Source: Prevotella sp.
GTDB lineage: Bacteria > Bacteroidota > Bacteroidia > Bacteroidales > Bacteroidaceae
Reading direction: 5' to 3'
Length of the DNA stretch: 39,244 nucleotides
NCBI GenBank assembly: GCA_017467535.1
Contig: JAFUST010000047.1
Location: forward strand, 1 to 39,244
This document shows, piece after piece, positions 583-24,931 of the stretch. A program made the position numbers and the translations under genes. Each line of letters opens with the position of its first letter. The stretch's first letter is position 1. Under the pieces are notes generated by a model. The model made no database searches and was not told the origin of the DNA. It worked only from the letters and a program-made list of their open reading frames with translations.

Positions 583-1746
583 ATGGCAGGATTATACCTT
601 CATATCCCCTTCTGTGCGAGCCGTTGCATCTACTGCGGCTTCTACTCCACCACCCGCGCCGATCTGCGCCAGAAGTACGTCGACGCCCTCTGTCGCGAGA
701 TGGAATTACACAAAAGGGACGGTTCTTTTTGTGTAAATACCGTCTACCTCGGCGGCGGCACGCCCTCGCAACTGACCGAGGCCCAGCTGCGCCAGCTCTT
801 TATATATATTAATAAGGTGTACGCTCTCACCTCTCACCTCTCACCACTCACCTCTGACATCGAGGTCACCATCGAGGTGAACCCCGACGACGTCACGCCG
901 CGCTACGCCGCCCTGCTGCGCCAGCTCGGCGTCAACCGCGTCTCAATGGGCGCCCAGACCTTCGACGACCGCCGCCTCCGCTTCCTCCGTCGCCGCCACA
1001 CCGCCGCCCAGGTCCGCCAGGCCGTCGACGACCTGCGCCAGTCCGGCATCCCGAACCTCAGCGTCGACCTCATGTATGGTTTCCCCGGTGAGAGCCTCGC
1101 CGACCTCGACCGCGACCTGACCGCCCTGCTCGCCCTCGACGTCGACCACATCTCCGCCTACTGCCTCATGGTCGAGGAGGGCACGCCCCTCCACCGCATG
1201 GGCATCGCCCCGTGCGACGAGGAGCTGGAGCGCCAGATGTACTACCACATCGCGGACCGCCTCACCCTGTCCGGCTACGAGCACTACGAAATCTCCAACT
1301 TCGCCCGCCCGGGCCGCCGCTCGCGCCACAACAGCAGCTACTGGCACGACGTCCCCTACCTCGGCCTCGGCGCCGCCGCCCACTCCTACCAGCCCCCCTC
1401 CACCACTCCCGCCGCTTCTCTGGCGGGCTACTCCCCCGCCGTCCGCTCCTGGAACGTTGCCGACCTGCGCGCCTACATCGCCGCCGTCAACCAGGGCCGC
1501 CTGCCCGCGGACCGCGAACTGCTGGACGCCGACACCCACTACAACGACCGCGTGGCCACCGCCCTGCGCACCAGCGACGGCCTCGACCTCCGTACCCTCG
1601 CCCCGCGCCACCGCCGCTACTGCACAGAGGAAGCCCGCCGCTTCCTCAGCGACGGGCTTCTTACCCTCGACGGCGACCGCCTGCGCCTTTCGCGCCGCGG
1701 CCTCTTCGTCAGCGACATGGTCATGGCCGGCCTCATGCTCGTTTAG
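583..1746 (+). CDS. hemW: HemW-type radical SAM protein (coproporphyrinogen oxidase-like heme chaperone)
   Basis: This 387-residue protein carries the radical SAM cluster motif CxxxCxxC at Cys11, Cys15 and Cys18, followed by GGGTPSQL and the VNPDD strand typical of HemN/HemW. The residue after CxxCG is Phe, so the fourth cysteine of true HemN (CxxxCxxCxC) is missing. This points to HemW, a heme-binding chaperone, rather than the oxidase. The C-terminal HemN_C-like part (GLLTLDG..LRLSRRGLF) is present. Three inserted segments interrupt family-like sequence: about residues 42-52 (TTACACAAAA hairpin), 80-92 (TCACCTCT repeats) and 274-283 (palindromic core). All keep the frame. The gene converges on the HU-like gene with a 26-base gap. 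The family assignment is firm; the effect of the insertions is unknown. Confidence 0.9.
   Translation: MAGLYLHIPFCASRCIYCGFYSTTRADLRQKYVDALCREMELHKRDGSFCVNTVYLGGGTPSQLTEAQLRQLFIYINKVYALTSHLSPLTSDIEVTIEVNPDDVTPRYAALLRQLGVNRVSMGAQTFDDRRLRFLRRRHTAAQVRQAVDDLRQSGIPNLSVDLMYGFPGESLADLDRDLTALLALDVDHISAYCLMVEEGTPLHRMGIAPCDEELERQMYYHIADRLTLSGYEHYEISNFARPGRRSRHNSSYWHDVPYLGLGAAAHSYQPPSTTPAASLAGYSPAVRSWNVADLRAYIAAVNQGRLPADRELLDADTHYNDRVATALRTSDGLDLRTLAPRHRRYCTEEARRFLSDGLLTLDGDRLRLSRRGLFVSDMVMAGLMLV
706..736 (+). repeat. In-frame hairpin repeat TTACACAAAA/TTTTGTGTAA in hemW
   Basis: Ten-base perfect inverted arms (706-715 and 727-736) flank a loop reading GGGACGGTTCT. It is read in frame as Leu-His-Lys-Arg-Asp-Gly-Ser-Phe-Cys-Val-Asn, between the helix after the radical SAM motif and the VYLGGGTPS strand, where HemW proteins normally have a short loop. 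Confidence 0.7.
823..856 (+). repeat. In-frame TCACCTCT direct repeats in hemW
   Basis: Four variants of CTCACCTCT in tandem encode Leu-Thr-Ser-His-Leu-Ser-Pro-Leu-Thr-Ser before the conserved IEVTIEVNPDD strand. A 23-base stretch (833-855) is identical to one inside the GH78 gene (23575-23597), but it is read in a different phase there. Confidence 0.7.
1408..1427 (+). repeat. Palindromic coding element, copy in hemW
   Basis: The core is CCCGCCGCTTCTCTGGCGGG, with 7-bp arms containing one G-T pair. It encodes Pro-Ala-Ala-Ser-Leu-Ala-Gly at about residues 276-282, in the loop after the conserved GLGAAAHSY segment. The core starts at codon position 1, as in every other copy in the window. Confidence 0.85.
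1623..1662 (+). repeat. hemW coding segment nearly identical to the hairpin after GH127
   Basis: This stretch matches 14965-15004 over most of its length: the shared parts are CACAGA(A/G)GAAGCCC, GCCGCT and AGCGACGGGCTTCTT. In hemW it encodes EEARRFLSDGLLTL, which looks like native HemW sequence. The relation between a coding segment and an intergenic hairpin is unexplained. Confidence 0.5.
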
Positions 1747-1772
1747 CACCGGCCCGCCGACCGCGCTCCCGA

Positions 1773-2342
1773 TTAGTTAGCGTCGGCACCGCCGCCGGGG
1801 TTATCGCCGCCGCCGGGCGTGACGGTTCCCGTGCCGCCCTCGTCACTGGGAATCGCCGTGTCCGAAGCCACGTACTTCACCTTCTGCGCCTGCTTCTTCA
1901 GGGCAAACTGCTTCGAGAACTTCACGCCTATCGTAGCGCCTAGCGTCCATGTCAGGCGGTCGGGCGTCAGGTCGCTCTCCAAGGCCACCGTGCGGATGGG
2001 TTTCGACGCATCCAGCGCGTGCGCTTCCGTCGTCTCGCGCAGGATGTCGGCATCCGTCACCGAGCCAGTCACCTTCGGGTAGATGGTCACCATGCGCGTG
2101 CCCTGCTCGTCCGACAGACTGATGCGGTTCGACTCCAGCACCTCCTCGTACACAATGTCGGATATCGCAGCCACAATGGCCTGCACCTCGTAGCTCTTGA
2201 AGCCCGTCCGCGCCGCAATCTTCGACGCCAGTTCCTGGTTCGTAATCTCGTTGTCAATCACTGCCTCAGCATAGAAGCTGTGGCTTCCCGGCATGTCGCC
2301 TGTTGCCCGGTACTCGCGGGCCCTCCATTTGTTTTTTGCCAT
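1773..2342 (-). CDS. HU-like DNA-binding protein with Gly-rich tail
   Basis: This 189-residue protein resembles the Bacteroidetes HU/IHF-like proteins with an extended N-terminal region (the HU-HIG type). The pattern TNQELASKIAARTGFKSYEVQAIVAAISDIVYEEV in the first 75 residues is the helical HU-fold dimer core, and RISLSDEQGTRMVTIYPKV follows as strands. The C-terminal 20 residues are a Gly/Pro/Asp-rich tail rich in GGG, probably disordered. The expected role is nonspecific DNA binding and nucleoid organisation. The ATG at 2340-2342 is preceded by AT-rich sequence and then by a tandem TACCTAGGTA array 50-130 bases upstream, which could hold its own control sites. No signal peptide is seen. 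The DNA-binding call is from family resemblance only. Confidence 0.7.
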   Translation of the reverse strand: MAKNKWRAREYRATGDMPGSHSFYAEAVIDNEITNQELASKIAARTGFKSYEVQAIVAAISDIVYEEVLESNRISLSDEQGTRMVTIYPKVTGSVTDADILRETTEAHALDASKPIRTVALESDLTPDRLTWTLGATIGVKFSKQFALKKQAQKVKYVASDTAIPSDEGGTGTVTPGGGDNPGGGADAN

Positions 2343-2391
2343 AATTCCTAAATGTTTTAAACATGTTAATAATAATATTGAAAGAAATTCT

Positions 2392-2473
2392 TACCTAGGT
2401 AAGAGCGGCACGGATACCTAGGTAAGAGTGGTGCGAATACCTAGGTAAGAGTGGTGCGAATACCTAGGTAAGA
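2392..2473. repeat. Tandem 23-bp array with TACCTAGGTA palindromes
   Basis: Three full 23-base units start at 2392, 2415 and 2438, and a 13-base partial unit starts at 2461. Each begins with the perfect palindrome TACCTAGGTA followed by AGAGTGGTGCGAA or a close variant. The array ends are reverse complements of each other (ATTCTTACCTAGGTA at the left, TACCTAGGTAAGAAT at the right). It lies between a terminator and the HU-like start codon, so it may be an operator array. Confidence 0.85.
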
Positions 2474-2496
2474 ATTCCGCGCTTCCCTTGGGAGAC

Positions 2497-2539
2497 TAAA
2501 AATCCCTGCACCGGGCACCGCACCGCCCAAGTGCAGGGA
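2497..2539 (-). terminator. Rho-independent terminator of the secreted protein gene at 2558-3211
   Basis: On the minus strand, arms TCCCTGCAC and GTGCAGGGA (2531-2539 and 2503-2511) enclose a 19-base loop and are followed by TTTTTAG. It lies 18 bases past the stop codon of the minus-strand gene. Confidence 0.7.
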
Positions 2540-2557
2540 ACCGAAACATTTAAGCCA

Positions 2558-3211
2558 TTACAAATCCTTCAGCGGGTCGGCATCCGCCTTGTGCTCCCAA
2601 TCCTTGATCAGGCCATAGTTGTTAGAACCACGTACATATGCAAAATTGTTGGAATACTTGCCTGCACCCTGATAGTATGAATCCCATTCATTACTGTCAA
2701 ACATCGTGGTGCCATCGGCCAGCTCGTAAATTTCAGCGACCCACATACGGCGGCAACTGATGGTACCGTCATTGTTGCGAAGAATATTCCAGTCATCATT
2801 CCTGAAAATGCACTGCACTAACTTGCGGTCTTTGTACCTGTGGTCAGCGGCACGCTTGCGGTTCTCGAACTTCTCATTGTCAAGCAGGAACTCAATCATC
2901 TCCTTCTTGCCCTCCTTGTCGCGGAAGTTCTTCTCCCAGCCCCAAATCTCATCGGCAGTCATGACCTTCATGCTCGCATAGAACTTCTCGACGGTCACCA
3001 TCTCGCCCGTCTTCCAGCTCCTCACCTCGCAGACGCCCTTATCGGTCTTCTTCACCGTAGTCTCCCCCGTCTTCGGGTCTGTAACCTCAACCTTATCCTT
3101 CTTCTTCAACAGCCTTTTACCCAAACCGATAATAGACTGAGCATCCGCCGTCGTCGAGACCGCGAACATGGCAACGAGTGCCATCACTGAAATCCTAATT
3201 GAATGTCTCAT
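2558..3211 (-). CDS. Small secreted protein of unknown function
   Basis: The protein has 217 residues. Residues 1-25 form a signal peptide ending in ADAQ (cleavage after Ala24 or Gln25). A Lys-rich stretch (GKRLLKKKDKVEV) follows, then a Trp/Tyr-rich region without a recognised domain. The signal peptide is nearly identical to that of the protein at 15199-16440 (both contain ISVMALVAM followed by AVST), and both mature proteins begin with a basic amphipathic stretch. The two genes also share a long upstream control region, so they look like diverged or promoter-sharing relatives. A strong promoter (TATCTTTGCA at 3254-3263) and a terminator (2497-2539) make it a single-gene transcript. It is divergent from the methyltransferase fusion. 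I do not assign a function. Confidence 0.75.
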   Translation of the reverse strand: MRHSIRISVMALVAMFAVSTTADAQSIIGLGKRLLKKKDKVEVTDPKTGETTVKKTDKGVCEVRSWKTGEMVTVEKFYASMKVMTADEIWGWEKNFRDKEGKKEMIEFLLDNEKFENRKRAADHRYKDRKLVQCIFRNDDWNILRNNDGTISCRRMWVAEIYELADGTTMFDSNEWDSYYQGAGKYSNNFAYVRGSNNYGLIKDWEHKADADPLKDL

Positions 3212-3253
3212 AATCTTCTCTTTTAATGTTTAATGTTTAAAGTAAATATCGGC

Positions 3254-3263
3254 TGCAAAGATA
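3254..3263 (-). promoter_or_regulatory. -7 promoter element for the secreted protein at 2558-3211
   Basis: The minus strand reads TATCTTTGCA, an exact TAnnTTTGCA element, about 43 bases before the start codon. Confidence 0.7.
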
Positions 3264-3285
3264 CGAATTAATTTGTTAAATAATG

Positions 3286-3311
3286 TACCCCCCCTTAAAA
3301 AACCTTAAATA
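3286..3311 (-). promoter_or_regulatory. Conserved upstream box TTTTAAGGGGGGGTA
   Basis: The plus strand reads TACCCCCCCTTAAAA followed by AACCTTAAATA. The first 15 bases are identical at 16568-16582, and both copies sit 22-23 bases upstream of a TAnnTTTGCA element in front of related secreted proteins. It overlaps or adjoins the -33 position and may bind a shared activator. Confidence 0.5.
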
Positions 3312-3362
3312 GTGACAAACAGCCCCAAAAAACGTCTTAAACATAAAAAACAGACCACGACA

Positions 3363-6583
<3,221 letters not shown>

Positions 6584-6587
<4 letters not shown>

Positions 6588-7291: not shown

Positions 7292-7319
7292 AATCTTTTC
7301 GGTTTTAGTTAAGATGCCG

Positions 7320-7327
7320 CGAAGATA
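7320..7327 (-). promoter_or_regulatory. Weak -7 element for deoD
   Basis: The minus strand reads TATCTTCG about 29 bases before the start codon. It differs from TAnnTTTG at one base, so the call is tentative. Confidence 0.35.
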
Positions 7328-7419: not shown

Positions 7420-7440
7420 TATATAAATAATGTATACGTT

Positions 7441-12839: not shown

Positions 12840-14963
12840 ATGAAAAGACTCCTCCTTTGTATGGTATGTTGCTGTACCGCAGCAACCCAAACCACAGCCC
12901 AAGGCCTGACCGACATGAGCCGCAGCCAGCAGGCCAAGATGCAGAACCTGCCCATGGGCGCCACCCAGTGGACGGGCGGCTTCTGGGGCGACCGCTTCAG
13001 CGTGCTCTCAACCACCGGCATCTGGTCGATGTGGGACACGTGGAACACGCCCTACGAGACCATCGACGCACTGGGCCTGCACGGCTCGCACGGCTTTGCC
13101 AACTTCCAGGTGGCCGCAGGCACCGTCAAGGGCAAGCACCACGGCCCTCCCTTCCACGACGGCGACATGTATAAGTGGCTCGAGGCCTGCGCCGCCGTCT
13201 ATGCCGTCACCCGCGACCAGAAGCTCGACCAGCTGATGGACCAGTTCATCGAGCAGGTCGCCTTGGCCCAGCGCGCCGACGGCTACATCCACACTCCCGT
13301 GGTCATCTCGGAGCGCAACCAGGGCATCGACTCGCACGCTCTCAAAGAAAATGCCGCCGGCATCGAGATTGGCAAGGACCAGCAGCACGCCTTCGCCTCG
13401 CGCCTGAACTTCGAGACCTACAACCTGGGCCACCTCATGACCGCCGGTATCGTCCACAAGCGCGCCACGGGCAAGACCACCCTCTTCGACTGCGGTCGAC
13501 GGGCCGCCGACTTCCTCTACAACTTCCTGACCAACGACGCCGCCGAGCTGTCGCGCAACGCCATCTGCCCCTCGCACTACATGGGCGCTGCCGAGATGTA
13601 CCGCGAGACGGGCGACCGGAAGTATCTGGAGCTGGCCAAGGGCCTCATCGCCATCCGCGACTCGGTGCAGAACGGCGAGGACCACAACCAGGACCGCCAT
13701 AAGTTTCGCGACCAGTACGAGGCCATGGGCCATGCCGTCCGCGCCAACTACCTCTATGCCGGCGTGGCCGACCTCTACGCCGAGACCGGCGAGGCTCAGC
13801 TGATGCGCAACCTGAGCGCCATCTGGGACGACATCACGCAGCACAAGATATACATCATGGGTGGCTGCGGCGCCCTCTACGACGGCGTCTCGCCCGACGG
13901 CACCACCTACAACCAGCCCTCCATCCAGCAGATTCACCAAGCCTACGGCCGCCAGTTCCAGCTGCCCCAGGAGGCCGCCCACAACGAAATCTGCGCCCAG
14001 ATAGGCATGCTGCTCTACTCCTGGCGCATGTTCCAGACCACCGCCGACCCGAAGTACATCGACAACATCGAGAACGAGCTCTACAACGGCATCCTCTCAG
14101 GCATCTCCCTCGACGGCCGCGACTTCTTCTACACCGAGGCCCTGCGCCGCACCAAGGAGTTCCCCTACACCCTCCGCTGGCCCAAGCACCGCCAGCGCTA
14201 CATCACCTGCTTCTGCTGTCCGCCCAACACCCTGCGCACCCTCTGCGAGGCCCAGGAGTACGCCTACAGCATCCACGCCGACCAGCTCTGGGTCAACCTC
14301 TACGGCCAGAACACGCTGAAGACCCGCGACCTGGAGATTGAGCAAGTGACCGACTACCCCTGGGACGGCCGCATCACCCTGACCATCAAGAAGGCCAAGG
14401 CCCTCCAGACCATCCACCTGCACAAGCCCGGCTGGTGCAGCCAGTACGAGGTGAAAGTGAACGGCGAACCGGCCACCACCACTCCCGCCGCTTCTCCGGC
14501 GGGCTCCACCATCACCCTCACCCGCCGCTGGAAGAAGGGCGACGTCATCACCCTGACCCTCGCCATGCCCGTCCGCCTCGTCGAGGCCAACCCGCTGGTC
14601 GAGGAGGCTAAGAACCAGGTCGCCGTCATGCGCGGCCCCATCGTCTACTGCCTCGAGGGCCAGGACATCGCCGCCACTACTCCCGCCGCTTCTCCGGCGG
14701 GCACCATCCGCATCAACGACATCGCCCTGCCCACCGACATCCAGCTGACTCAGAAGCCCATCACCATCGACGGCCACCAGATGATAGCCCTCGAGGGCGA
14801 CGCCCTCCTGGTCAACGACCGCACGTGGGACAACCGCACCCTCTACCGCCCCCTGCAGTCCGCCGCCCGCCGCCAGACGGTCCGCATCCGCCTCATCCCC
14901 TACTACGCCTGGGACAACCGCGGCGTCCAGGACATGTCCCTCTGGCTGCCCCTCGCCCGCTGA
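12840..14963 (+). CDS. GH127 beta-L-arabinofuranosidase-type protein (DUF1680)
   Basis: This 707-residue protein has an N-terminal signal peptide of about 21 residues (MKRLLLCMVCCCTAATQTTA), so it is exported. The (alpha/alpha)6 barrel shows FWGDRFSV, HDGDMYKWLEA, and AAHNEICAQIG, with Glu383 and Cys385 matching the Glu and first Cys zinc ligands of HypBA1. TCFCCPPN supplies the remaining zinc/nucleophile cysteines (about Cys457, Cys459, Cys460). Family members cleave beta-L-arabinofuranosides, as in plant hydroxyproline-rich glycoproteins or rhamnogalacturonan-II. Two palindromic elements insert TTPAASPAG in the C-terminal beta-sandwich (about residues 547-556 and 613-621). It is the last gene of the operon and is followed by a hairpin at 14969-15006. 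Confidence 0.92.
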   Translation: MKRLLLCMVCCCTAATQTTAQGLTDMSRSQQAKMQNLPMGATQWTGGFWGDRFSVLSTTGIWSMWDTWNTPYETIDALGLHGSHGFANFQVAAGTVKGKHHGPPFHDGDMYKWLEACAAVYAVTRDQKLDQLMDQFIEQVALAQRADGYIHTPVVISERNQGIDSHALKENAAGIEIGKDQQHAFASRLNFETYNLGHLMTAGIVHKRATGKTTLFDCGRRAADFLYNFLTNDAAELSRNAICPSHYMGAAEMYRETGDRKYLELAKGLIAIRDSVQNGEDHNQDRHKFRDQYEAMGHAVRANYLYAGVADLYAETGEAQLMRNLSAIWDDITQHKIYIMGGCGALYDGVSPDGTTYNQPSIQQIHQAYGRQFQLPQEAAHNEICAQIGMLLYSWRMFQTTADPKYIDNIENELYNGILSGISLDGRDFFYTEALRRTKEFPYTLRWPKHRQRYITCFCCPPNTLRTLCEAQEYAYSIHADQLWVNLYGQNTLKTRDLEIEQVTDYPWDGRITLTIKKAKALQTIHLHKPGWCSQYEVKVNGEPATTTPAASPAGSTITLTRRWKKGDVITLTLAMPVRLVEANPLVEEAKNQVAVMRGPIVYCLEGQDIAATTPAASPAGTIRINDIALPTDIQLTQKPITIDGHQMIALEGDALLVNDRTWDNRTLYRPLQSAARRQTVRIRLIPYYAWDNRGVQDMSLWLPLAR
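14484..14503 (+). repeat. Palindromic coding element, first copy in GH127
   Basis: This is the consensus core CCCGCCGCTTCTCCGGCGGG in phase 1, encoding Pro-Ala-Ala-Ser-Pro-Ala-Gly. It sits in a beta-turn between the strands YEVKVNGEP and TITLTRRW. Confidence 0.9.
14682..14701 (+). repeat. Palindromic coding element, second copy in GH127
   Basis: This consensus core is read in phase 1 after Thr-Thr, between CLEGQDIAA and TIRINDIALP. Confidence 0.9.
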
Positions 14964-16700: not shown

Positions 16701-18656
16701 ATGCTCAACACCCGCACCCCCCTCCGCCTCCTGGCCGCCCTCCTCCTCGCCGCCACCACCGTCGTCGTTCCCGCCGCCGCCACCACCGTCGTCGTTCCCG
16801 CCGCCGCCACCGTTCCCCTTCCCGCAGGTTCTCCTGCGGGCCCCACCACCCTCTACATCACCCCCGACTCCTCCCTCGCCGACGCCGTCCGCCACGCCCG
16901 CGAGCTGCGCCGCACCGGCCGCGCTACCGCCGTCACCATCCACCTCAGCCCCGGCACCTACCTCCTCACCGAGCCCCTCCGCCTCCGCCCCGAAGACAGC
17001 GGCCTCACCATCCAGGGTCCCGCCACCACTCCCGCCGCTTCTCCGGCGGGCCCCTCTGCCGCCATCATCAGCGGCGCCCTCCCCATCACCGGCTGGCGCC
17101 GCCAGGGCCGCCTCCTCGTCGCCGACGTCCCCGACTTCAACGGCCGCCCCATCGACTTCCGCCAGCTCTGGGTCAACGGCCGCAAGGCCGTCCGTGCTCG
17201 CGACATCCCCGTCACCATTCCCGTCGGTTCTCCGGCGGGCCCCTCTGACCCCTTCGAGCACATGCACCGCATCCTCACCTACGACAAGCAGCACCGCCGC
17301 CTCTGGGTACCCCGCAAGGCCGTCCAGAAAATCCTGAAGGCCCCCTACCCCGAGCTCGTCCTCCACGAAATGTGGTGCACCTCCAACCTCCGCATCCGCT
17401 CCATGACCGTCCAGGGCGATTCCGTCGCCCTCACCTTCCACGACCCCGAGGCCCGCCTCCAGTTCCAGCACCCCTGGCCCTCACCCATGACGCCCTCGAC
17501 CGGCCACCCCTCACCCTTCTACCTCACCAACGCCCTCGAACTGCTCGACGAGCCCGGCGAGTGGTACCACGACCTGCGCACCCCCCGCCTCTACTACATG
17601 CCCCGCCCCGACGACCTCCTGCCCGCCACCGCCGGTTCCGCCGCCACCGTGCCCGGCGGTTCACCGTCGGGTCTCACCGCCCTCGTCCCCGTCCTCGAAA
17701 CCCTCGTCCAGTTCATCGGCACCCCCGAGCACCCCGTCCGCAACATCCAGTTCCGCGGCGTCCAGTTCAGCCACACCACCTGGCTGCGCCCCTCCCTCGA
17801 GGGCCACGTCCCCCTGCAGGCCGGCATGCCCCTCATCGAGGCCTACAAGCTGCGCCCCCAGATAGACCGCCCCAACAACCACAAGCTCGACAACCAGGGC
17901 TGGCTCGGCCGCGCCCATGCCGCCGTCGAGCTGCGCTACGCCGAGGACTGCGGCTTCCACGCGTGCCGCTTCCAGCACCTCGGCGGCTCCGGCCTCGACT
18001 ACGTCCTCGGCTGCCATCGCGGCACCACCGCCAATTGCCTCTTCACCGACATCGCCATGAACGGCTACGTCTGCGGCTCCTTCTCCCCCGAAGGCCTCGA
18101 GACCCACCTGCCCTACCAGCCCGCCGACTTCCGCGACGTCTGCACCGGCCAGCGCGTCGAGCAGTCCCTCTTCCACGACGTCACCAACGAAGACTGGGGC
18201 TGCGTCGCCATCTGTGCCGGCTACGTCAGCGGCATCCTCATCGACCACAACACCATCCACGACGTCTCCTACACCGGCATCTCCCTTGGCTGGGGCTGGA
18301 ACCGCGACCTCGTCTCGATGCGCGACAACGTCGTCCACGCCAACCTCATCTACAACTACGCCCGCCACATGTACGACTGCGCCGGCATCTACACCCTCGG
18401 CAACCAGCCCGGCACCATCATCTCCGAGAACGTCGTCCGCGACATCTGCACCCCCACCTACGTCCACGACCCCAACCACTGGTTCTACCTCTACACCGAC
18501 GAAGGCTCCTCCAACATCACCCTCCGCGACAACTGGACCCCCACCGACAAGTACCTCCGCAACGCCAACGGCCCCGGCAACCTGTGGGAGAACAACGGCC
18601 CCCAAGTGTCCGAAGCCATCAAGCGCGCCGCCGGCTGTCAACAGCAAGAGAGGTGA
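16701..18656 (+). CDS. Secreted right-handed beta-helix protein, paralog of 7441-8979
   Basis: This 651-residue protein has a signal peptide followed by a tandem ATTVVVPAA repeat encoded by a duplicated 27-base unit (16752-16778 and 16779-16805). The N-terminal module (ADAVRHARELRRTGRA, LRLRPEDSGL) and the C-terminal beta-helix (NEDWGCVAICAGYV, YTGISLGWGW, YDCAGIYTLGNQPG) match the paralog. It is longer partly because of four palindromic elements, encoding residues near 41-47, 111-117, 174-180 and 318-324. The fold suggests a polysaccharide-active enzyme, possibly GH141-like; the activity is not assigned. The last residues and stop codon come from a 20-base repeat (18644-18663). Codons end almost only in C or G. 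It converges with the Lrp gene across a hairpin terminator. Confidence 0.82.
   Translation: MLNTRTPLRLLAALLLAATTVVVPAAATTVVVPAAATVPLPAGSPAGPTTLYITPDSSLADAVRHARELRRTGRATAVTIHLSPGTYLLTEPLRLRPEDSGLTIQGPATTPAASPAGPSAAIISGALPITGWRRQGRLLVADVPDFNGRPIDFRQLWVNGRKAVRARDIPVTIPVGSPAGPSDPFEHMHRILTYDKQHRRLWVPRKAVQKILKAPYPELVLHEMWCTSNLRIRSMTVQGDSVALTFHDPEARLQFQHPWPSPMTPSTGHPSPFYLTNALELLDEPGEWYHDLRTPRLYYMPRPDDLLPATAGSAATVPGGSPSGLTALVPVLETLVQFIGTPEHPVRNIQFRGVQFSHTTWLRPSLEGHVPLQAGMPLIEAYKLRPQIDRPNNHKLDNQGWLGRAHAAVELRYAEDCGFHACRFQHLGGSGLDYVLGCHRGTTANCLFTDIAMNGYVCGSFSPEGLETHLPYQPADFRDVCTGQRVEQSLFHDVTNEDWGCVAICAGYVSGILIDHNTIHDVSYTGISLGWGWNRDLVSMRDNVVHANLIYNYARHMYDCAGIYTLGNQPGTIISENVVRDICTPTYVHDPNHWFYLYTDEGSSNITLRDNWTPTDKYLRNANGPGNLWENNGPQVSEAIKRAAGCQQQER
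16752..16805 (+). repeat. Tandem 27-bp duplication at the signal peptide
   Basis: Two identical 27-base units, each encoding ATTVVVPAA, lie back to back, and a third partial unit follows (GCCACCGTTCCC). They lengthen the region around the expected signal peptidase site. Confidence 0.85.
16821..16840 (+). repeat. Palindromic coding element with compensated arms, after the signal peptide
   Basis: The core is CCCGCAGGTTCTCCTGCGGG: perfect 8-bp arms, with both sides changed (CAGG with CCTG), so pairing is preserved. It encodes Pro-Ala-Gly-Ser-Pro-Ala-Gly in phase 1. Confidence 0.9.
17031..17050 (+). repeat. Palindromic coding element, second copy in the beta-helix gene
   Basis: This is the consensus core, preceded by GCCACCACT as in GH127, in phase 1, between GLTIQG and AIISGALPITGW. 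Confidence 0.9.
17220..17239 (+). repeat. Palindromic coding element, third copy in the beta-helix gene
   Basis: The core CCCGTCGGTTCTCCGGCGGG is identical to the variant at 4608-4627 in the methyltransferase fusion, including the T-G pair. It encodes Pro-Val-Gly-Ser-Pro-Ala-Gly. Confidence 0.9.
17652..17671 (+). repeat. Palindromic coding element, fourth copy in the beta-helix gene
   Basis: The core CCCGGCGGTTCACCGTCGGG has 8-bp arms with one G-T pair and a TTCA loop. It encodes Pro-Gly-Gly-Ser-Pro-Ser-Gly in phase 1. It is a diverged copy. Confidence 0.75.
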
Positions 18657-18693
18657 GCCGTCGGCATCCAAACGCAAGAGAGGTGAGCCGTCG
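18644..18693 (+). repeat. 20-bp direct repeat pair at the end of the beta-helix gene
   Basis: GCAAGAGAGGTGAGCCGTCG occurs at 18644-18663 and 18674-18693. The first copy supplies the final residues and the TGA stop (18654-18656) of the beta-helix gene. The second copy forms the left arm of the terminator hairpin. Confidence 0.85.
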
Positions 18694-18707
18694 CTCACCT
18701 CTCTTGC
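18674..18707. terminator. Perfect 15-bp hairpin between converging genes
   Basis: Left arm GCAAGAGAGGTGAGC (18674-18688), loop CGTC, right arm GCTCACCTCTCTTGC (18693-18707). It lies between the stops of the beta-helix gene and the Lrp-family gene and probably serves both strands. The right arm resembles the TCACCTCT repeats seen in hemW and GH78. Confidence 0.7.
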
Positions 18708-18724
18708 CTCTTCCTTCTCACCTC

Positions 18725-19189
18725 TTATATATTAATCCCGTAGTTCTGCTTCATTTCGCTCATCACAAACGTGCTCTCGATGGACGCCAGGCTCTCAATC
18801 TCGCCCAGCTTGTTGAGCACAAACTCCTGATACTGCTTCATGTCACGTGCGCGTACCTTTAATAAATAGTCGTACGAGCCCGACGTGTTGTAGCACTCCG
18901 TCACCTCCGGTATGCGCATGATGCGCCGCGCAAAGGCGTCGGCAATCTCGTGGTTAATCTGCTTAAGCTTCACCTTGCAGAACACCTGCAAGCCCTGTCC
19001 CAGCTTCTCAGGGTCGAGCACGGCCACATACTTCTTGATGTAGCCCCGCTTCTCCAGTCGCTTCTGCCGTTCAAACACCGGCGTCGGCGTCAGGTGCACC
19101 GCGTCGGCCAGCTCCTTGGTGGTCAGTTTCGCATTCCTTTGCAGCGTTTTCAGTATCTGCAAGTCGATTTCGTCTAAGAGTTCAGCCAT
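18725..19189 (-). CDS. Lrp/AsnC-family transcriptional regulator
   Basis: The 154 residues are the normal length for the family. Residues 5-65 are the winged helix-turn-helix (LDEIDLQILKTLQRNAKLTTKELADAVHLTPTPVFERQKRLEKRGYI). Residues 70-150 are the RAM effector domain (VFCKVKLKQINHEIADAFARRI, GSYDYLLKVRARDMKQYQEF, IESLASIESTFVM). Such proteins sense amino acids and form dimers to octamers on DNA. It is divergent from metY, with a promoter on each side of a short interval. Control of metY/cysK or of its own gene is a reasonable inference. A TAATTTTGCA promoter lies at 19279-19288, leaving a leader of about 85 bases with a small GC hairpin. Confidence 0.93.
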   Translation of the reverse strand: MAELLDEIDLQILKTLQRNAKLTTKELADAVHLTPTPVFERQKRLEKRGYIKKYVAVLDPEKLGQGLQVFCKVKLKQINHEIADAFARRIMRIPEVTECYNTSGSYDYLLKVRARDMKQYQEFVLNKLGEIESLASIESTFVMSEMKQNYGINI

Positions 19190-19278
19190 AATATCGTCCT
19201 TTTAGTTGTCCTATTTAGAGTTTTATTCTGTCAGCGGCCCTCGTCGGGCCCCGAAACGGAATGATATTCTTTACGAGT

Positions 19279-19288
19279 TGCAAAATTA
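19279..19288 (-). promoter_or_regulatory. -7 promoter element for the Lrp-family gene
   Basis: The minus strand reads TAATTTTGCA, about 90 bases before the start codon at 19189. Confidence 0.6.
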
Positions 19289-19315
19289 GGTATATTTTCT
19301 GGAATACGCAAGAAA

Positions 19316-19334
19316 TTTGGTAGATATTTCCAAA
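19316..19334. promoter_or_regulatory. Possible operator overlapping the metY -33 region
   Basis: TTTGG-TAGATATTT-CCAAA is a short inverted repeat whose left arm holds the TTG expected at -33 of the metY promoter. It could bind the divergently encoded Lrp-family protein; the arms are only 5 bp. Confidence 0.3.
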
Positions 19335-19339
19335 CTTAG

Positions 19340-19349
19340 TACCTTTGCA
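19340..19349 (+). promoter_or_regulatory. -7 promoter element for metY
   Basis: TACCTTTGCA is an exact match to TAnnTTTGCA, 49 bases before the ATG at 19399. The in-frame ATG at 19345 lies within this element and is rejected as a start. Confidence 0.75.
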
Positions 19350-19398
19350 TCGTCAAACAGAACATAAATTATTAACAAATAACAGAAAGGATAAGATT

Positions 19399-20691
19399 AT
19401 GAGTACAACGAAGAACTATCGCTTTGAGACACTGCAACTGCATGTAGGCCAAGAACAGGCCGACCCCGCAACCGACGCCCGTGCGGTGCCCATCTATCAG
19501 ACCACGTCGTACGTGTTCCGCAACTCACAACACGCTGCCGACCGCTTCGGCCTGCGCGATGCCGGTAACATCTATGGCCGACTGACCAACTCGACCCAGG
19601 GCGTGTTCGAAGACCGCGTGGCAGCCCTCGAGGGTGGCGTGGCCGGACTGGCCGTCGCCTCAGGTGCCGCAGCCATTACCTATGCCCTGCAGAACATTGC
19701 CCAGGCCGGTGACCACATCGTCGCAGCCGACAACCTGTATGGCGGTTCGTACAACCTGATAACCCACACGCTGGCTACGCAGGGCATCACGAACACCATT
19801 ATCAACGTAAACGACCTCGCAGCCCTCGAAGCTGCCATCCGTCCCAACACAAAAGTCATATACGCCGAGACCTTCGGCAACCCTAACAGCGACGTGCTCG
19901 ACCTTGAAGGCGTAGCCGCCGTGGCTCACAAGCACGGCATACCGTTCATCGTCGACAACACCTTTGGCACGCCCTACCTTATCCGTCCCCTGGAGCACGG
20001 CGCCGACATCGTAGTTCACTCGGCCACTAAGTTCCTTGGCGGTCACGGCACCAGCCTCGGCGGCGTCATCGTCGACGGCGGCAAGTTCGACTGGAAGGCC
20101 AATCCCGACAAGTTCCCCACACTAGCCAAGCCCGATCCCTCATACCACGGCATCGTGTTTGCCGACGCCGTAGGTGCTGCGGCCTACGTCACCCGCATCC
20201 GTGCCGTCATCCTGCGCGATACCGGTGCTGCCATCTCGCCCTTCAATGCCTTCATCCTGCTGCAGGGTGTCGAGACGCTAAGCCTGCGCGTCGAGCGTCA
20301 CGTGCAGAACGCCCTGAAGGTCGTCGACTTCCTCAGCAAGCATCCGAAGGTGGCTGCCGTGCACCATCCTGCACTGGAAAACCATCCCGATCACGCCCTT
20401 TATCAGAAGTATTACCCCAACGGCGGCGCCAGCATCTTCACATTCGAAATCAAGGGCGGACAGGAAGAGGCCTGGAAGTTCATCGATGCCCTGCAGATAT
20501 TCTCGCTGCTGGCCAACGTGGCCGACGTGAAGAGTCTGGTCATCCACCCCTACACTACCACCCACTCGCAGCTTTCGCCCGAGGAACTGGCCGAACAGCA
20601 CATCACCCCGGCTACCGTCCGACTGAGCATCGGTACCGAGCACATCGACGACATCATCGACGACCTTTCGCAGGCTCTCGACAAGATTTAA
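19399..20691 (+). CDS. metY: O-acetylhomoserine sulfhydrylase (PLP-dependent, Cys/Met metabolism family)
   Basis: This 430-residue enzyme has the length and motifs of O-acetylhomoserine aminocarboxypropyltransferases, which make homocysteine from O-acetylhomoserine and sulfide. It begins YRFETLQLHVGQEQADPATDARAVPIYQTTSYVF. Y..L.NPT-like YGRLTNSTQGVFEDRVAALEGG, the FVDNTF-like FIVDNTFGTPYL and the PLP lysine in VHSATKFLGGHG (Lys211) are present. The C-terminal LSIGTEHIDDIIDDL is typical. It is cytoplasmic. It is transcribed from its own promoter, opposite the Lrp-family gene and 68 bases before cysK. The homocysteine product could be the acceptor for the methyltransferase fusion at 3363-6587. 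A cystathionine gamma-synthase role is less likely given the length and the YQTTSYVF start. Confidence 0.9.
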   Translation: MSTTKNYRFETLQLHVGQEQADPATDARAVPIYQTTSYVFRNSQHAADRFGLRDAGNIYGRLTNSTQGVFEDRVAALEGGVAGLAVASGAAAITYALQNIAQAGDHIVAADNLYGGSYNLITHTLATQGITNTIINVNDLAALEAAIRPNTKVIYAETFGNPNSDVLDLEGVAAVAHKHGIPFIVDNTFGTPYLIRPLEHGADIVVHSATKFLGGHGTSLGGVIVDGGKFDWKANPDKFPTLAKPDPSYHGIVFADAVGAAAYVTRIRAVILRDTGAAISPFNAFILLQGVETLSLRVERHVQNALKVVDFLSKHPKVAAVHHPALENHPDHALYQKYYPNGGASIFTFEIKGGQEEAWKFIDALQIFSLLANVADVKSLVIHPYTTTHSQLSPEELAEQHITPATVRLSIGTEHIDDIIDDLSQALDKI

Positions 20692-20726
20692 TGACCTCCG
20701 ATGGCAGGAATTAGAGAATTAATTCG

Positions 20727-20736
20727 TAACTTTGCA
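20727..20736 (+). promoter_or_regulatory. -7 promoter element for cysK
   Basis: TAACTTTGCA lies 24 bases before the cysK ATG, so cysK has its own promoter in addition to any read-through from metY. Confidence 0.7.
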
Positions 20737-20759
20737 CCCAATTAATAAACTATAGCATT

Positions 20760-21707
20760 ATGACTAAGATAGCAAAACAGCTGACCGAGCTCGTCGGCAA
20801 CACCCCACTTCTGGAGCTCAACAAGTATTCACAGGCACAGGGTCTCGACACCCCAGTGATTGCCAAAGTAGAGTTTTTCAACCCCGGCGGTAGTGTAAAG
20901 GACCGTATAGCGCTGGCCATGATTGAGGATGCAGAACAGAAAGGCATCCTGAAGCCCGGCGCCACCATCATCGAACCCACCAGCGGAAACACCGGCGTAG
21001 GACTGGCACTGGTATCAGCCGTCAAGGGCTACCATCTTATCCTTACCATGCCCGAGACCATGAGCGTCGAGCGTCGCAACCTTGTCAAGGCCTACGGGGC
21101 CGAGGTACGACTGACGTCAGGCAAGGACGGCATGCCAGGTGCCATCCGCGCTGCCGAGGATCTGCGCGACTCAATTCCAGGAGCCGTCATCCTGCAACAG
21201 TTCGAGAACGCCGCCAACCCCGCCAAGCACTATGCCACCACGGGTCCTGAAATCTGGCGCGACACCGACGGTCAGGTCGACATCTTCATCGGCGGTGTGG
21301 GCACAGGCGGCACCATCAGCGGCGCCGGCAAGTATCTGAAGGAGCAGAATCCCAACGTGAAGATTATTGCGGTAGAGCCCAAGTCGAGCCCCGTGCTGAA
21401 CGGCGGCCAGAGCGGTCCCCACAAGATTCAGGGTATCGGAGCCGGTTTCGTGCCTAAGACCTACGATGCCGACATCATCGACGAAGTGTTCGATGTAGAA
21501 AACGACGAAGCCATCCGCACGGGTCGCGAGATAGCCAAGTCCGAAGGCCTGCTGGTCGGCATCTCTGCCGGTGCTGCCCTCTTCGCTGCCATCCAGGTGG
21601 CCAAGCGTCCTGAGAACAAGGGTAAGAAGATTGTGGTGCTGCTGCCCGATACCGGCGAGCGCTACCTCTCTACCGTGCTCTACGCCTTCGAGGACTATCC
21701 TCTTTAA
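20760..21707 (+). CDS. cysK: Cysteine synthase A (O-acetylserine sulfhydrylase)
   Basis: The 315 residues match CysK length. The PLP lysine lies in [11 protein letters not shown] (Lys47). The substrate loop [10 protein letters not shown], the phosphate-binding [18 protein letters not shown] and the C-terminal [15 protein letters not shown] are all present. The enzyme makes cysteine from O-acetylserine and sulfide in the cytoplasm. It follows metY and has its own promoter. The stop codon overlaps that of the converging metallophosphoesterase in a shared TTAA (21704-21707). The sequence is ordinary and has no inserted repeats. Confidence 0.96.
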
Positions 21708-22786
21708 CGGCGCTTCAGGTGGAGCACCAGGTATTCAGAGCGGGTACCGATGCGAATTTTCGGGCCCCAGATGCCCAGTCCGGAACTGACGTAGTAGCGG
21801 GTATTGCCACGCTGATGGAAGCCCCACGACTTCTCGTACACAGCATCGGTAATCCACGATATGGGCCACACCTGCCCGCGATGCGTATGCCCGCTGAACT
21901 GAAAGTCGATGCCTGCCTGCTCAGCCTCTTCCAAGTGGTAAGGCTGGTGGTCCAGCAAAATAGTAAAGCCCTTCGCCCCTGCGGCAAGGGCTTTTACCGT
22001 TGCACGCCGGAAGGCCGAACGGTCGTTGCGGCCAATCACGTCCACACCCTTGAAGTGGGCCACCGAGTCCTTCAGCAGCACGATGCCAGCCTCCTTGAAG
22101 AAGCGCTCCGCCTCGTCAATCTGGCTGATATACTCGTGGTTGCCGTGAACCGTGAAGACCGGCGCCTGAATGCGGTGGAACTCCTCAGCATAGTTGCCCT
22201 CGTCGACTGGGCGCAGGCTCCTGTCGATGATGTCGCCGCCAATGAGCACCAGGTCGGGATTCTCGCCATTGATCAGGTCCACCCACCGTGCCAGCTCAGC
22301 CTTGCGGTTATGGTAGCCTATATGCAGGTCGCTGGCCAGCACAATGGTCAGCGGCTTTTCTATGGCCTTCTCGGTGGTCAGGGTCAGTTCCTTGCGATGT
22401 TTGTGATGATACTCTACACCGCCCAGCATCATAACGACGGCAATGAGCCCCACGACCGACATCAGCCCTACCGGGTTATCCCGAAGCAGCGACTTGGGCA
22501 GCAGATGGCACAGCGAGGCCACATCGGCCAGCACGAAGGCTATCAGCAGATACAGGAAAAATATCAGCCACGTGGTGCCGACTTCGTAGAGCACAATGGC
22601 CAGCTTGATGGGGACATGGTCCATCACGAAAAAGCCCACAAAGAATACGGCCATCCACAGCAGAAACAGTCCCGTGACGGTCAGCTTCAGCGCCCCGCCA
22701 GCAGGGGCCATTCGCCACAAATGCCAGCTGACATAGGCCGTTAGCGCGACAACCAAGGCCAGAAAGAACACAAACACTTTCATCAT
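21704..22786 (-). CDS. Membrane-anchored metallophosphoesterase (YkuE/YaeI-like)
   Basis: The protein has 360 residues. The N-terminal 130 residues hold four or five membrane helices ([35 protein letters not shown] and two later helices). A calcineurin-type metallophosphoesterase domain follows, with [21 protein letters not shown] and GHTHRGQ supplying the two-metal ligands. The likely substrate is a phosphoester or a lipid-linked pyrophosphate near the membrane (YaeI-like), not assigned. The start at 22784-22786 is chosen because an in-frame ATG at 22819 lies within the promoter TAATTTTGCA (22815-22824). It is divergent from the GH78 gene and converges with cysK. Confidence 0.88.
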
Positions 22787-22814
22787 GCGATACAATAAAA
22801 ACGTTAAATCTCGC

Positions 22815-22824
22815 TGCAAAATTA
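22815..22824 (-). promoter_or_regulatory. -7 promoter element for the metallophosphoesterase
   Basis: The minus strand reads TAATTTTGCA, 29 bases before the chosen start. It lies back to back with the GH78 promoter, 22 bases apart. Confidence 0.65.
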
Positions 22825-22846
22825 GCCATTATTCCCCAAAAAGCCG

Positions 22847-22856
22847 TATCTTTGCA
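22847..22856 (+). promoter_or_regulatory. -7 promoter element for GH78
   Basis: TATCTTTGCA lies 33 bases before the ATG at 22889. Confidence 0.75.
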
Positions 22857-22888
22857 TACATATTTAAATAACTTTATAGAAAACTTGT

Positions 22889-24931
22889 ATGAAGACTACT
22901 GACGCAACATGGATATGGTATCCTGGCGACTTCGAGGTTTGGCTGGGCAACATCTTTAATAATCGGCGCACGGAGCGCGGCGCCATGTTTCCACCGTTCT
23001 GGAAACAAGACTCGCACTACGTGACGGTCGAGTTTTCAAAAGCCTTCGTGCTCGACCGCGACGATACCATTACCATCCACTGCGAGGGGCAGTACAACTT
23101 CAGCCTCGACGGTAAACTGCAATTTCCCAACAACACATACACCATCCCTGCCGGCAAGCACCAACTGAATCTGAAGGTGTGGAACCAGGCCGAGCCGCCA
23201 GCCCTGTACATCAAAGGCGAAACCATCCATACCGACTCCACGTGGCTGGCTACCTACGAGGACAAGCTGTGGATTGACGAAAACGGCGTGGCCCATGGCT
23301 CAGGCATCTACGTTCCTGCATCCTCCTGGCATTTCAACAACCCTGACACGCCGCCCTCGTCCTTCCATCTGAACACCGAGGAGCAACGCCCCGTGTCTGC
23401 CACTGTGCCTGCCAGTTCGCCGTCGGGTATCCTCTACGACTTCGGCCGCGAGACCTTCGGCTATCTGATTGTCAAGAACCTGACGGGCACCGTGCGCGTC
23501 TACTACGGCGAAAGCCGCGAGGAAGCCCTCGACCGGGAGCACTGCGAGACGCTGGACGTGCTCAGTTCCAAACACTCACCTCTCACCACTCACCTCTCCA
23601 GTAAGGCCTTCCGTTATGTCTATATAGAGAAGGAAGCCGGGGCCAGCTACGACGATGTGGCTATGGACTATGCATACGCCCCCTTCGACGAGCAGCATAG
23701 CGGCCATTTCCACTGCTCCGACGAACTGCTGAACAGCATCTGGCAGACCGCTGCACGCACGCTGGAGCTGACCACACAGGAGTTCTTCATGGACGGCATC
23801 AAGCGCGACCGCTGGACCTGGTCGGGCGACGCCATCCAGTCGTACTTGATGAACTACTACCTGCACTTCGACGCGGAGTGCGTCAAGCGCACCATCCGTC
23901 AGCTGCGCGGAAAGGACCCCGTCACCGCCCACGTCAACACCATCATGGACTACACCTTCTACTGGTTCAAGTCCATACTGGACTACTACGAATATACCGC
24001 CGACGCTGCCTTCGTGCGCGAGATGTGGCCCCGCATGGTGACGCTGATGGATTACTGCATCGAGCGAACCAACACGGACGGACTGATGGAGGGACAGCCA
24101 GACGACTGGATTTTCGTAGACTGGGTGGACTTTCCCATGCACAAGCGCGGCACGCTCTGCTTCGAGCAGATATTGTTCGTAGAGGCATTGCATGTAATGG
24201 CTGTCTGCGCACAGATCGCCGATGACGACCATGACGGCTACTACGAAATGGAAGCCCAAAGGATCGCCCAGAAGGTGAAGCAGCTGTTCTGGAGCGACGA
24301 GCAGAAGGCCTACCTGCACGCCATCGAGGACGGCGAACTGAACCCGCAGATCACCAAGTTCCCCAACATGTTCGCCATCCTCTACGGACTGAGCTCCGAA
24401 GAAGAGCGCCGCGACATCATGCAAAGCGTCATGCTGAACCCGCAGATAGACCCCATCACCACGCCCTACATGCGCTTCTACGAACTGGAAGCGCTCTGCA
24501 TGGACGGCCTGCAGACCCGCGTACTCCAGGAGATGCGCGACTACTGGGGCGGCATGCTGCGCGAGGGAGCGACGTCGTTCTGGGAAAAGTATGTGCCAAC
24601 GGAGTCGGGCACGCAACATCTGGCCATGTACGGTCGCCCCTACGGCAAGTCGCTGTGTCACGCCTGGGGCGCCTCGCCCATCTACCTGCTGGGCAAATAC
24701 TACTTAGGCGTACGTCCCACCCGTCCCGGCTATCAGGAGTTCGAAATCCGCCCCGCATTGGGCGATTTGGAATGGATGGAGGGCGACGTCCCCACCCCGC
24801 ACGGCATGATACACATCGAGATGGACCGCCACCACGTCAAGGTGCTCGCCACCGAAGGCTGTGGCAAGCTGATTATTGGCGACCAAACAGTCAACATAGA
24901 AGCCAACAAGCCTGTTGCCATCAACTACTAA
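22889..24931 (+). CDS. GH78 alpha-L-rhamnosidase-type protein
   Basis: This 680-residue protein has no signal peptide and so is probably cytoplasmic. N-terminal beta-sandwich domains come first, then an (alpha/alpha)6 barrel from about residue 280. The acid motif is DGIKRDRWTWSGD, with Asp302, Asp307 (Glu in many GH78 enzymes) and Asp314. Glu566 in SFWEKY is the likely general base. The C-terminal beta-sandwich holds HAWGASPIYLLGKYYLG and ends INY. The expected activity is release of terminal L-rhamnose from pectin-type glycans or glycosides. A diverged palindromic element (23408-23427) and a TCACCTCT insertion (23573-23599) lie in the N-terminal half. It is transcribed from its own promoter; no partner transporter is adjacent. 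Confidence 0.88.
   Translation: MKTTDATWIWYPGDFEVWLGNIFNNRRTERGAMFPPFWKQDSHYVTVEFSKAFVLDRDDTITIHCEGQYNFSLDGKLQFPNNTYTIPAGKHQLNLKVWNQAEPPALYIKGETIHTDSTWLATYEDKLWIDENGVAHGSGIYVPASSWHFNNPDTPPSSFHLNTEEQRPVSATVPASSPSGILYDFGRETFGYLIVKNLTGTVRVYYGESREEALDREHCETLDVLSSKHSPLTTHLSSKAFRYVYIEKEAGASYDDVAMDYAYAPFDEQHSGHFHCSDELLNSIWQTAARTLELTTQEFFMDGIKRDRWTWSGDAIQSYLMNYYLHFDAECVKRTIRQLRGKDPVTAHVNTIMDYTFYWFKSILDYYEYTADAAFVREMWPRMVTLMDYCIERTNTDGLMEGQPDDWIFVDWVDFPMHKRGTLCFEQILFVEALHVMAVCAQIADDDHDGYYEMEAQRIAQKVKQLFWSDEQKAYLHAIEDGELNPQITKFPNMFAILYGLSSEEERRDIMQSVMLNPQIDPITTPYMRFYELEALCMDGLQTRVLQEMRDYWGGMLREGATSFWEKYVPTESGTQHLAMYGRPYGKSLCHAWGASPIYLLGKYYLGVRPTRPGYQEFEIRPALGDLEWMEGDVPTPHGMIHIEMDRHHVKVLATEGCGKLIIGDQTVNIEANKPVAINY
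23408..23427 (+). repeat. Degenerate palindromic coding element in GH78
   Basis: CCTGCCAGTTCGCCGTCGGG encodes Pro-Ala-Ser-Ser-Pro-Ser-Gly in phase 1 after Thr-Val. The arms no longer pair fully, so this may be an old copy or a chance resemblance. The phase and the flanking Thr-Val match the copy at 17652. Confidence 0.5.
23573..23599 (+). repeat. In-frame TCACCTCT repeat in GH78
   Basis: CACTCACCTCTCACC followed by ACTCACCTCTCC encodes Ser-Pro-Leu-Thr-Thr-His-Leu-Ser between VLSSK and SSKAFRYVYIE. It shares 23 identical bases with hemW but is read in another phase. Confidence 0.7.

What the first reader, a model, noticed from the sequence alone, without database searches (positions are those of the whole stretch)
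1408..23427. A 20-bp palindromic element inserted in frame in five unrelated genes
I count 21 copies of a core like CCCGCCGCTTCTCCGGCGGG: one in hemW, thirteen in the methyltransferase fusion, two in GH127, four in a beta-helix gene and one degenerate copy in GH78. Every copy is in the same strand orientation relative to its gene and starts at codon position 1, encoding Pro-(Ala/Val/Gly)-(Ala/Gly/Ser)-Ser-Pro-(Ala/Ser)-Gly (Leu for the second Pro in hemW). Six phase/orientation choices exist, so chance is unlikely. Copies sit at loops and linkers. This is a dispersed, protein-coding palindrome, similar in concept to Rickettsia palindromic elements.
Basis: partly seen in the sequence, partly recalled or inferred. 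Interest (0 to 1): 0.92.

Follow-up and report, generated by a model that had tools for sequence, protein, structure and literature searches.

The report
In-frame palindromic insertion element in Prevotella
A 30-base hairpin-forming DNA element is scattered through many unrelated genes of gut Prevotella and of viral contigs, nearly always in the codon phase that adds a short loop-like peptide, much as described before for coding palindromes in Rickettsia.

Summary
In detail: 21 copies in five genes, all sense strand, all codon phase 0. The unit is about 30 nt: a 9-nt arm, an 8-bp stem, a TTCT loop and one base, usually reading ATVP[DAEVG]GSP[SATP]G. It is a genus-wide family: 58 of 398 genomes (own included) hold the exact generic core, and the reversed control holds none. 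In a named scan 74 of 81 stretches are Bacteroidales, mainly Prevotella. Of 121 distinct copies 109 have a clear frame; 105 of these are in phase 0, 95 reading PxGSPxG and 10 PxGEPxG on the other strand. A stem pair silent in the protein covaries (84 of 92 Watson-Crick, 47.8 expected). Orthologous empty sites exist, and viral contigs carry it, including portal genes. In four copies the loop is inverted relative to the arm. Best reading: a non-autonomous mobile coding palindrome that works like Rickettsia palindromic elements without being shown to be one. No mobilising enzyme was identified. New variant of a known kind.

The parts
1399..1428 (+). unit in hemW (core 1408-1427), reads STTPAASLAG
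   Evidence: absent from the 19 same-genus HemW homologs aligned
4479..4541 (+). two tandem units in the methyltransferase fusion gene 3312-6587 (cores 4488, 4521)
4599..4727 (+). four tandem units (cores 4608, 4641, 4674, 4707), interdomain linker
   Evidence: relatives have other fillers or shorter linkers here
5061..5150 (+). three tandem units at 30-nt period (cores 5070, 5100, 5130)
   Evidence: site without the units in relatives such as L045
5478..5573 (+). three tandem units at 33-nt period (cores 5487, 5520, 5553)
   Evidence: site without the units in relatives such as L047 and L045
5907..5936 (+). single unit with compensated stem CCCGCTGG/CCAGCGGG
14475..14504 (+). unit in GH127 gene 12840-14963, site 1
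   Evidence: absent from 9 of 9 relatives aligned
14673..14702 (+). unit in GH127, site 2; lies just before a Gly codon of relatives
   Evidence: absent from 9 of 9 relatives aligned
16812..16841 (+). unit in GH141 gene 16701-18656, compensated stem CCCGCAGG/CCTGCGGG
17022..17051 (+). unit in GH141
   Evidence: site empty in L284
17211..17240 (+). unit in GH141
   Evidence: site empty in L284
17643..17672 (+). degenerate unit in GH141 (PGGSPSG)
   Evidence: 4 mismatches; found by the covariance model, E 2.4e-4
23399..23428 (+). degenerate unit in GH78 gene 22889-24931 (ATVPASSPSG); homolog L111 has a better-kept unit at the same site

Best explanation
It is a 30-bp non-autonomous mobile element whose 20-bp palindromic core (8-bp stem, 4-nt loop) is maintained at the nucleic-acid level. 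Copies enter genes of Prevotella-like bacteria and of viral contigs. Copies that stay are those in codon phase 0, where both strands encode a turn-rich peptide (P-x-G-S-P-x-G, or P-x-G-E-P-x-G on the other strand) that a loop or linker tolerates. Shown: the phase bias, the silent covariation, the empty sites, occurrence in viral genes, within-genome similarity of the arm, and copies whose loop is inverted relative to the arm. Inferred: that it moves as a hairpin with enzymes supplied in trans, and that counter-selection removes the other phases.
For: Phase 0 in 105 of 109 copies with a clear frame, 12 more unclear (binomial against 1/3, 9e-45, copies treated as independent). Covariance-model copies: 24 of 24 clear ones in phase 0 (21 sense, 3 on the other strand, two of these in one locus), 3 unclear. 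The mostly synonymous pair N6-N15 is Watson-Crick in 84 of 92 unique coding copies, shuffled mean 47.8, 0 of 20,000 shuffles. Whole-stem covariation score 0.298 against 0.073 shuffled. Empty orthologous sites: HemW 0 of 19, GH127 0 of 9, and L119/L170 filled against L187 empty. Two viral portal proteins, 68% identical, carry it at different sites. The 9-nt arm is more alike within genomes than between (2.15 against 2.99 differences, 0 of 2000 shuffles). Four copies with a sense arm (8 of 9 matches) but the loop reverse-complemented (L190, L333, L337, L377). Host genes are diverse: SUF core, anthranilate synthase, GH2, GH31, a Clp-type ATPase, exonuclease VII, TonB receptor, GH94, phage portal. 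The seven non-Bacteroidales or untitled hits have free stem positions that do not pair.
Against: No transposition was seen and no mobilising enzyme identified. Net length change against the nearest empty homolog varies: 29 of 46 contexts are +3 to +15 codons, 9 are +1 or less, 8 are +21 or more, some holding tandem units, so a clean 30-nt step is not shown and flanks change too. Non-coding copies are not enriched (8 of 110 copies with a good arm are unclear), although random insertion followed by loss of out-of-phase copies should enrich them. Whole units reversed together with their arm are rare in the exact set (4 against 94 sense), and three of the four (L340, L358, L380) sit in one homologous gene, although the two peptides are alike. 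Exceptions: three copies read best in f1 and one in r2; in viral contigs 5 of 23 have another longest frame. Copies are not phylogenetically independent, and the named and generic sets share 42 contexts. In the own genome the element is confined to 3 contigs, and the bin may be chimeric.
Confidence: 0.7

Rival explanations
1. Protein-level convergence: Pro/Ala/Ser/Gly-rich linkers and loops chosen only for the peptide, the palindrome being a by-product of codon use.
For: Phase 0 nearly throughout; peptide is turn-rich; relatives fill the same linker with other low-complexity peptides.
Against: A mostly silent pair covaries (84 of 92); near-identical 30-nt DNA in many species and in viral contigs; the loop occurs as an exact reverse complement in copies with a sense arm, at sites where homologs have the usual loop.
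Confidence: 0.08
2. A selected mRNA hairpin (for example a pause or processing signal) placed in coding regions, spread by gene conversion.
For: Stable hairpin, -16 kcal/mol against a shuffled mean of -8.4; the sense orientation dominates.
Against: Copies on the other strand exist in frame; at the silent pair, changes leaving a G-U in the sense strand are not clearly favoured (TG 4, CA 6 of 121; TG 4, CA 2 of 77); hosts are unrelated, including viral structural genes; no Rfam match in the window at gathering thresholds.
Confidence: 0.13
3. A REP-type element moved by a Y1 (RAYT/IS200-like) transposase; this is a specific form of the best explanation.
For: Hairpin form and size; two RAYT-like subtypes, sorted by me after seeing the results, in 9 of 25 rich and 1 of 25 element-free genomes (Fisher 0.011, post hoc; the two groups also differ in completeness).
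Against: Any Y1_Tnp: 19 of 25 against 13 of 25 (p 0.14); of 20 inspected loci only L234 held any copies in the fetched stretch, and those lie inside the gene or more than 1 kb away; no GTAG or CGTC end tag; mainly coding, whereas REPs are mostly intergenic (PMC3733652, passages).
Confidence: 0.2
4. Assembly or binning artefact of a metagenome-assembled genome.
For: Own bin has two hemW genes (C7 and C98, 58% identical) and copies on only 3 of 108 contigs.
Against: Copies in 58 of 398 genomes, in a record not labelled MAG (MN60, two sense phase-0 copies), in one- and two-contig genomes (G290 two, G436 three model matches; the copies read there, L452 and L358, are on the other strand), and in viral contigs.
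Confidence: 0.03

Closest known systems
Rickettsia palindromic elements (RPE; Ogata 2000 and 2002, recalled and cited in a review; review PMC10969869, passages read)
   Same: Palindromic, dispersed, inserted in frame in unrelated genes, encodes a conserved peptide.
   Different: RPEs are about 150 bp in ten families; here about 30 bp in Bacteroidales, also in viral genes, with nearly the same peptide on both strands and loop inversion. No sequence comparison with RPEs was made.
Intragenic GTAG/CGTC REPs (PMC3733652, passages read)
   Same: Short hairpins, some inside ORFs, encoding amino acids; CGTC repeats are said there to occur in five phyla, Bacteroidetes among them.
   Different: No GTAG or CGTC end tag; here mainly coding, whereas those REPs are mostly intergenic; the paper's main text does not mention Prevotella (0 occurrences).
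Coding palindromes of Nematomorpha mitochondria (PMC6649704, start of abstract seen)
   Same: Inverted repeats inside genes.
   Different: Up to 284 bp, animal mitochondria; not a short dispersed family.
Palindromic amphipathic repeat coding sequence (PMC2996958, title and start of abstract seen)
   Same: Palindromic coding repeat, horizontally distributed.
   Different: Described there among intragenic tandem repeats of repeat proteins, not as single units in unrelated enzymes.

Membership tests
Rickettsia palindromic elements | in-frame insertion in unrelated genes, absent from homologs | tested here: met
Rickettsia palindromic elements | length near 150 bp, families of Rickettsia | tested here: not met
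   unit about 30 nt; found in Bacteroidales; RPE length taken from PMC10969869
Rickettsia palindromic elements | sequence homology to an RPE family | not tested
   no RPE sequence was fetched
REP (GTAG or CGTC class) | GTAG or CGTC tetranucleotide at one end | tested here: not met
   consensus ends are GCCACCGTT and GGGY
REP with RAYT | transposase gene flanked by copies | tested here: not met
   0 of 20 inspected Y1_Tnp loci closely flanked; L234 holds copies inside the ORF and at more than 1 kb
REP | mainly intergenic | tested here: not met
   105 of 121 in phase 0 of a clear coding frame on one strand or the other, 12 unclear
MITE | terminal inverted repeats with target-site duplication | tested here: inconclusive
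   no clear duplication in the empty and filled pairs; relatives too diverged
Known structured RNA | match to an Rfam family | tested here: not met
   0 matches at gathering thresholds over the window

The most novel reading that the evidence does not exclude
A two-way coding palindrome: a hairpin element so built that either strand, in phase, adds nearly the same tolerated peptide, that flips its core in place, and that moves between bacterial chromosomes and phages. It would be a general route by which loops of core enzymes and phage structural proteins are lengthened, with a still unknown coding- and sense-biased insertion process.
Probability: 0.35. Interest if true: 0.88.

Novelty: new variant of a known kind. 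Interest (0 to 1): 0.76.

Why it matters
In-frame palindromic elements are described chiefly from Rickettsia. A compact family of near-identical copies in gut Prevotella and in viral contigs offers many empty and filled orthologous sites, which makes it practical to ask how such elements move and why they are found in frame. It also marks Prevotella proteins whose extra loops are probably element-derived rather than functional domains.

Tried and rejected
Early narrow pattern (7 of 151 genomes matched, own included; in the six others no copy lay in a phase-0 frame longer than 81 codons) wrongly suggested that the element was private to this genome; the relaxed pattern corrected this. itself allowed two mismatches and its reversed control also hit more than 50 of the 398 genomes, so it served only to find variants; the exact generic pattern was used for counts. 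(own genome, two mismatches) had as many control hits as true ones. Y1_Tnp correlation: not convincing. Target-site duplication: none clear. G-U asymmetry as a test of RNA against DNA: no clear bias at the silent pair. Rfam: nothing. In one search six of the eight fusion homologs were translated from the wrong strand and their rows are meaningless; only L044 and L049 were used from it, and one search covered the others. No structure prediction was run, so 'loop' rests on gap positions in homolog alignments. Literature: searches listed no report of this element in Prevotella (open-licence library only, listings capped; 'PDGSPSG' 0 papers). My first reading of orientation as always sense was dropped after one search showed PDGEPSG at homologous sites; the first count of reversed copies was then split into loop-inverted and whole-unit reversed ones.
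Full report
OBSERVATION. The window is the whole contig C7 (39,244 bases) of a 2.39-Mb, 108-contig, 79%-complete bin. Pfam names the hosts: a HemW-type protein (Radical_SAM and HemN_C), a fusion with homocysteine S-methyltransferase and B12-binding domains, GH127, GH141 with a beta helix, and a bacteroidetes-type rhamnosidase. Thirteen copies lie in the fusion gene, mostly as tandem runs at 30 or 33 nt. At up to three mismatches the bin has two more copies, on C106 and C107, both in phase 0, in a phage portal gene and in a protein with Fer4_20 and Pyr_redox_2 domains. By my own reading of the consensus, all six frames of the unit are open, so phase 0 is not a result of stop codons.

A GENUS-WIDE FAMILY. 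A relaxed pattern showed variants with changed stems across the same genus (97 of 398 genomes at two mismatches, but its reversed control also hit more than 50 genomes). The exact generic core CCCG-NN-GG-TTCT-CC-NN-CGGG occurs in 58 of 398 genomes, own included, while the pattern read backwards occurs in none. A named scan of the GTDB genome collection with GTT in front gave 81 stretches: 74 are titled Prevotella, Prevotellaceae or other Bacteroidales, many naming ruminant gut samples, with two isolate-like names not labelled MAG (MN60, HUN156); six are from other phyla (Streptomyces twice, Poseidonia twice, Planctomycetota, Coriobacteriia) and one, L183, was listed without a title. In these seven the free stem positions do not pair, as for chance hits. 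That the unnamed genus is Prevotella-like is inferred from copies shared between the two sets (42 identical contexts); the sets are therefore not independent. The conserved unit spans 9 nt before the core to one base after it: 30 nt, ten codons, GCC ACC GTT CCC GAC GGT TCT CCG TCG GGY. Covariance model R1 finds 2 to 23 copies in each of 27 chosen element genomes and 2 matches in all in 13 chosen as element-free (at most 150 candidates scored per genome; some of the 27 supplied training rows).

PHASE. Frames were assigned by open reading frame plus codon-usage score, leaving the element out. Named set: 59 sense phase 0, 4 phase 0 on the other strand, 1 other, 13 unclear of 77. Generic set, 121 distinct copies out of about 126 that I count by hand from the table: 95 sense phase 0, 10 phase 0 on the other strand, 3 f1, 1 r2, 12 unclear. 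Covariance-model copies, mostly outside the exact set: 21 sense phase 0, 3 phase 0 on the other strand, 3 unclear of 27. Read on the other strand in phase 0 the unit gives PDGEPSGTVA, so the palindrome encodes nearly the same peptide both ways. The ten copies so read in the generic set are of different kinds: four have the arm reversed too (L340, L358, L359, L380; three of these in one homologous gene), four have the arm in sense and only the loop reverse-complemented (L190, L333, L337, L377), and two have weak arms. At some homologous sites one species has the usual loop and another the inverted one (L132 and L341 against L337; L111 against L377; L386 against L190). An exact reverse complement of four bases is better explained by in-place inversion of the core than by point changes.

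NUCLEIC-ACID LEVEL. Positions 6 and 15 of the core are third codon positions, silent on both sides except for Asp/Glu. In 92 unique sense coding copies they form a Watson-Crick pair in 84, against a mean of 47.8 when shuffled, 0 of 20,000 shuffles as high; pair 5-16 gives 78 of 92 against 47.5. On the hand-made alignment A1 the stem has 4 of 8 pairs with both-sided changes and a covariation score of 0.298, against 0.073 shuffled and at most 0.093 when slid (eight rows were picked by hand). Shuffles ignore relatedness. RNA folding gives -16 kcal/mol for the consensus. At the silent pair, changes leaving G-U in the sense strand and in the other strand are 4 and 6 of 121 and 4 and 2 of 77, so RNA and DNA are not told apart.

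INSERTION. HemW of the 19 same-genus relatives aligned and GH127 of 9 relatives lack the segments. In one conserved gene L187 reads VEIE-GATIYHKTE, L119 VEIETAPVPAGSPAGLTIYHKTE and L170 VEIETTVPEGSPSGATIYHKTE. At several sites the unit stands just before a Gly codon of the empty relative. Length change varies, so flanks are altered too. The methyltransferase fusion of eight same-genus relatives (73-82% identity over the best stretch) lacks these runs; some have other fillers in the same linker. Some hosts share an occupied site between species, for example the GH78 site (window and L111), so part of the set is inherited.

VIRAL GENES. In IMG/VR contigs the generic core has 63 copies in 61 stretches, 28 of them with fully complementary free positions; many of the rest look like chance. 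Of 25 copies with a good arm (6 of 9 or better) the longest of the six frames is sense phase 0 in 11, phase 0 of the other strand in 7, another frame in 5, and under 150 codons in 2 (two contigs share one context). Of 10 sense phase-0 ORFs given to PHROGs, 2 are portal proteins, 1 matches head and packaging families, 1 HNH endonucleases, 1 only families of unknown function, and 5 have no match. The two portal proteins are 68% identical and carry the unit at different places. Hosts of these viruses are not known to me, and some contigs may be prophages.

MOBILITY AND MECHANISM. Within a genome the 9-nt arms are more alike than between genomes, as expected for local amplification. The search for a mobiliser was inconclusive: Y1_Tnp in 19 of 25 rich and 13 of 25 element-free genomes; two RAYT-like subtypes, sorted by me after the fact, in 9 and 1; none of 20 loci closely flanked by copies, one with two copies (one a variant) inside its own frame. 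My best account is a non-autonomous hairpin element, moved by an unknown enzyme, with counter-selection leaving phase-0 copies. Two facts do not fit simple random insertion: few copies can be non-coding (8 of 110 with a good arm are unclear), and units reversed together with their arm are rare (4 against 94).

COMPARISON. It works like Rickettsia palindromic elements, whose review description (44 insertions in R. conorii, about 150 bp, ten families, conserved peptides; PMC10969869, passages) matches in concept but not in length or host. It fails the end-tag, location and flanking tests for GTAG/CGTC REPs (PMC3733652, passages). I file it as a new variant of a known kind, not as a member of either. 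The searches named in Tried and rejected listed no earlier report.

CAVEATS. The own bin has two HemW-type genes (C7 and C98), so contig C7 may come from another species; the family does not depend on this bin. Copies are not independent events. Codon-score frame calls are not annotations. No structures were predicted.

Noticed in passing
window 826-855 (hemW) and 23575-23597 (GH78): A second in-frame repeat, CTCACCTCTCACC, reads SHLSPLTS-like; in hemW it lies in a loop that varies in length among relatives. Similar short units lie near 18,649-18,725.
   Followed up: partly
L049, L233, L235, L236 (other genomes and own C108): Permissive linkers hold quite different in-frame fillers (EVRGEKLEVRGE, HGEVHGEV, VVTQAPYVHS), suggesting several repeat families enter loops in this genus.
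   Followed up: partly
G000 contigs C7 and C98: Two hemW-type genes, 58% identical, in one bin: possible chimeric bin or a true paralog.
   Followed up: no
L234 (G213 contig 33): A RAYT-like gene carries two palindromes (one a variant) in frame inside itself, in a region with several more copies.
   Followed up: partly
L129 and L108 (Candidatus Sodaliphilus limicaballi): Copies without a clear reading frame; in L129 three at about 53-bp spacing.
   Followed up: no
L138, L167, L120: In a pyridine-nucleotide-disulphide oxidoreductase gene the empty relative reads TTVPG where the filled ones read ATVPDGSPSG, so the native site resembles both ends of the unit.
   Followed up: partly
L085 (G531 contig 197): A unit with the innermost stem pair changed to T-A (PAVSTAG), a further compensated variant outside the exact pattern.
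   Followed up: partly
L340, L358, L378, L380: PDGEP[ST]G at one homologous site in four genomes; whether this is an inserted unit or native sequence was not tested.
   Followed up: no
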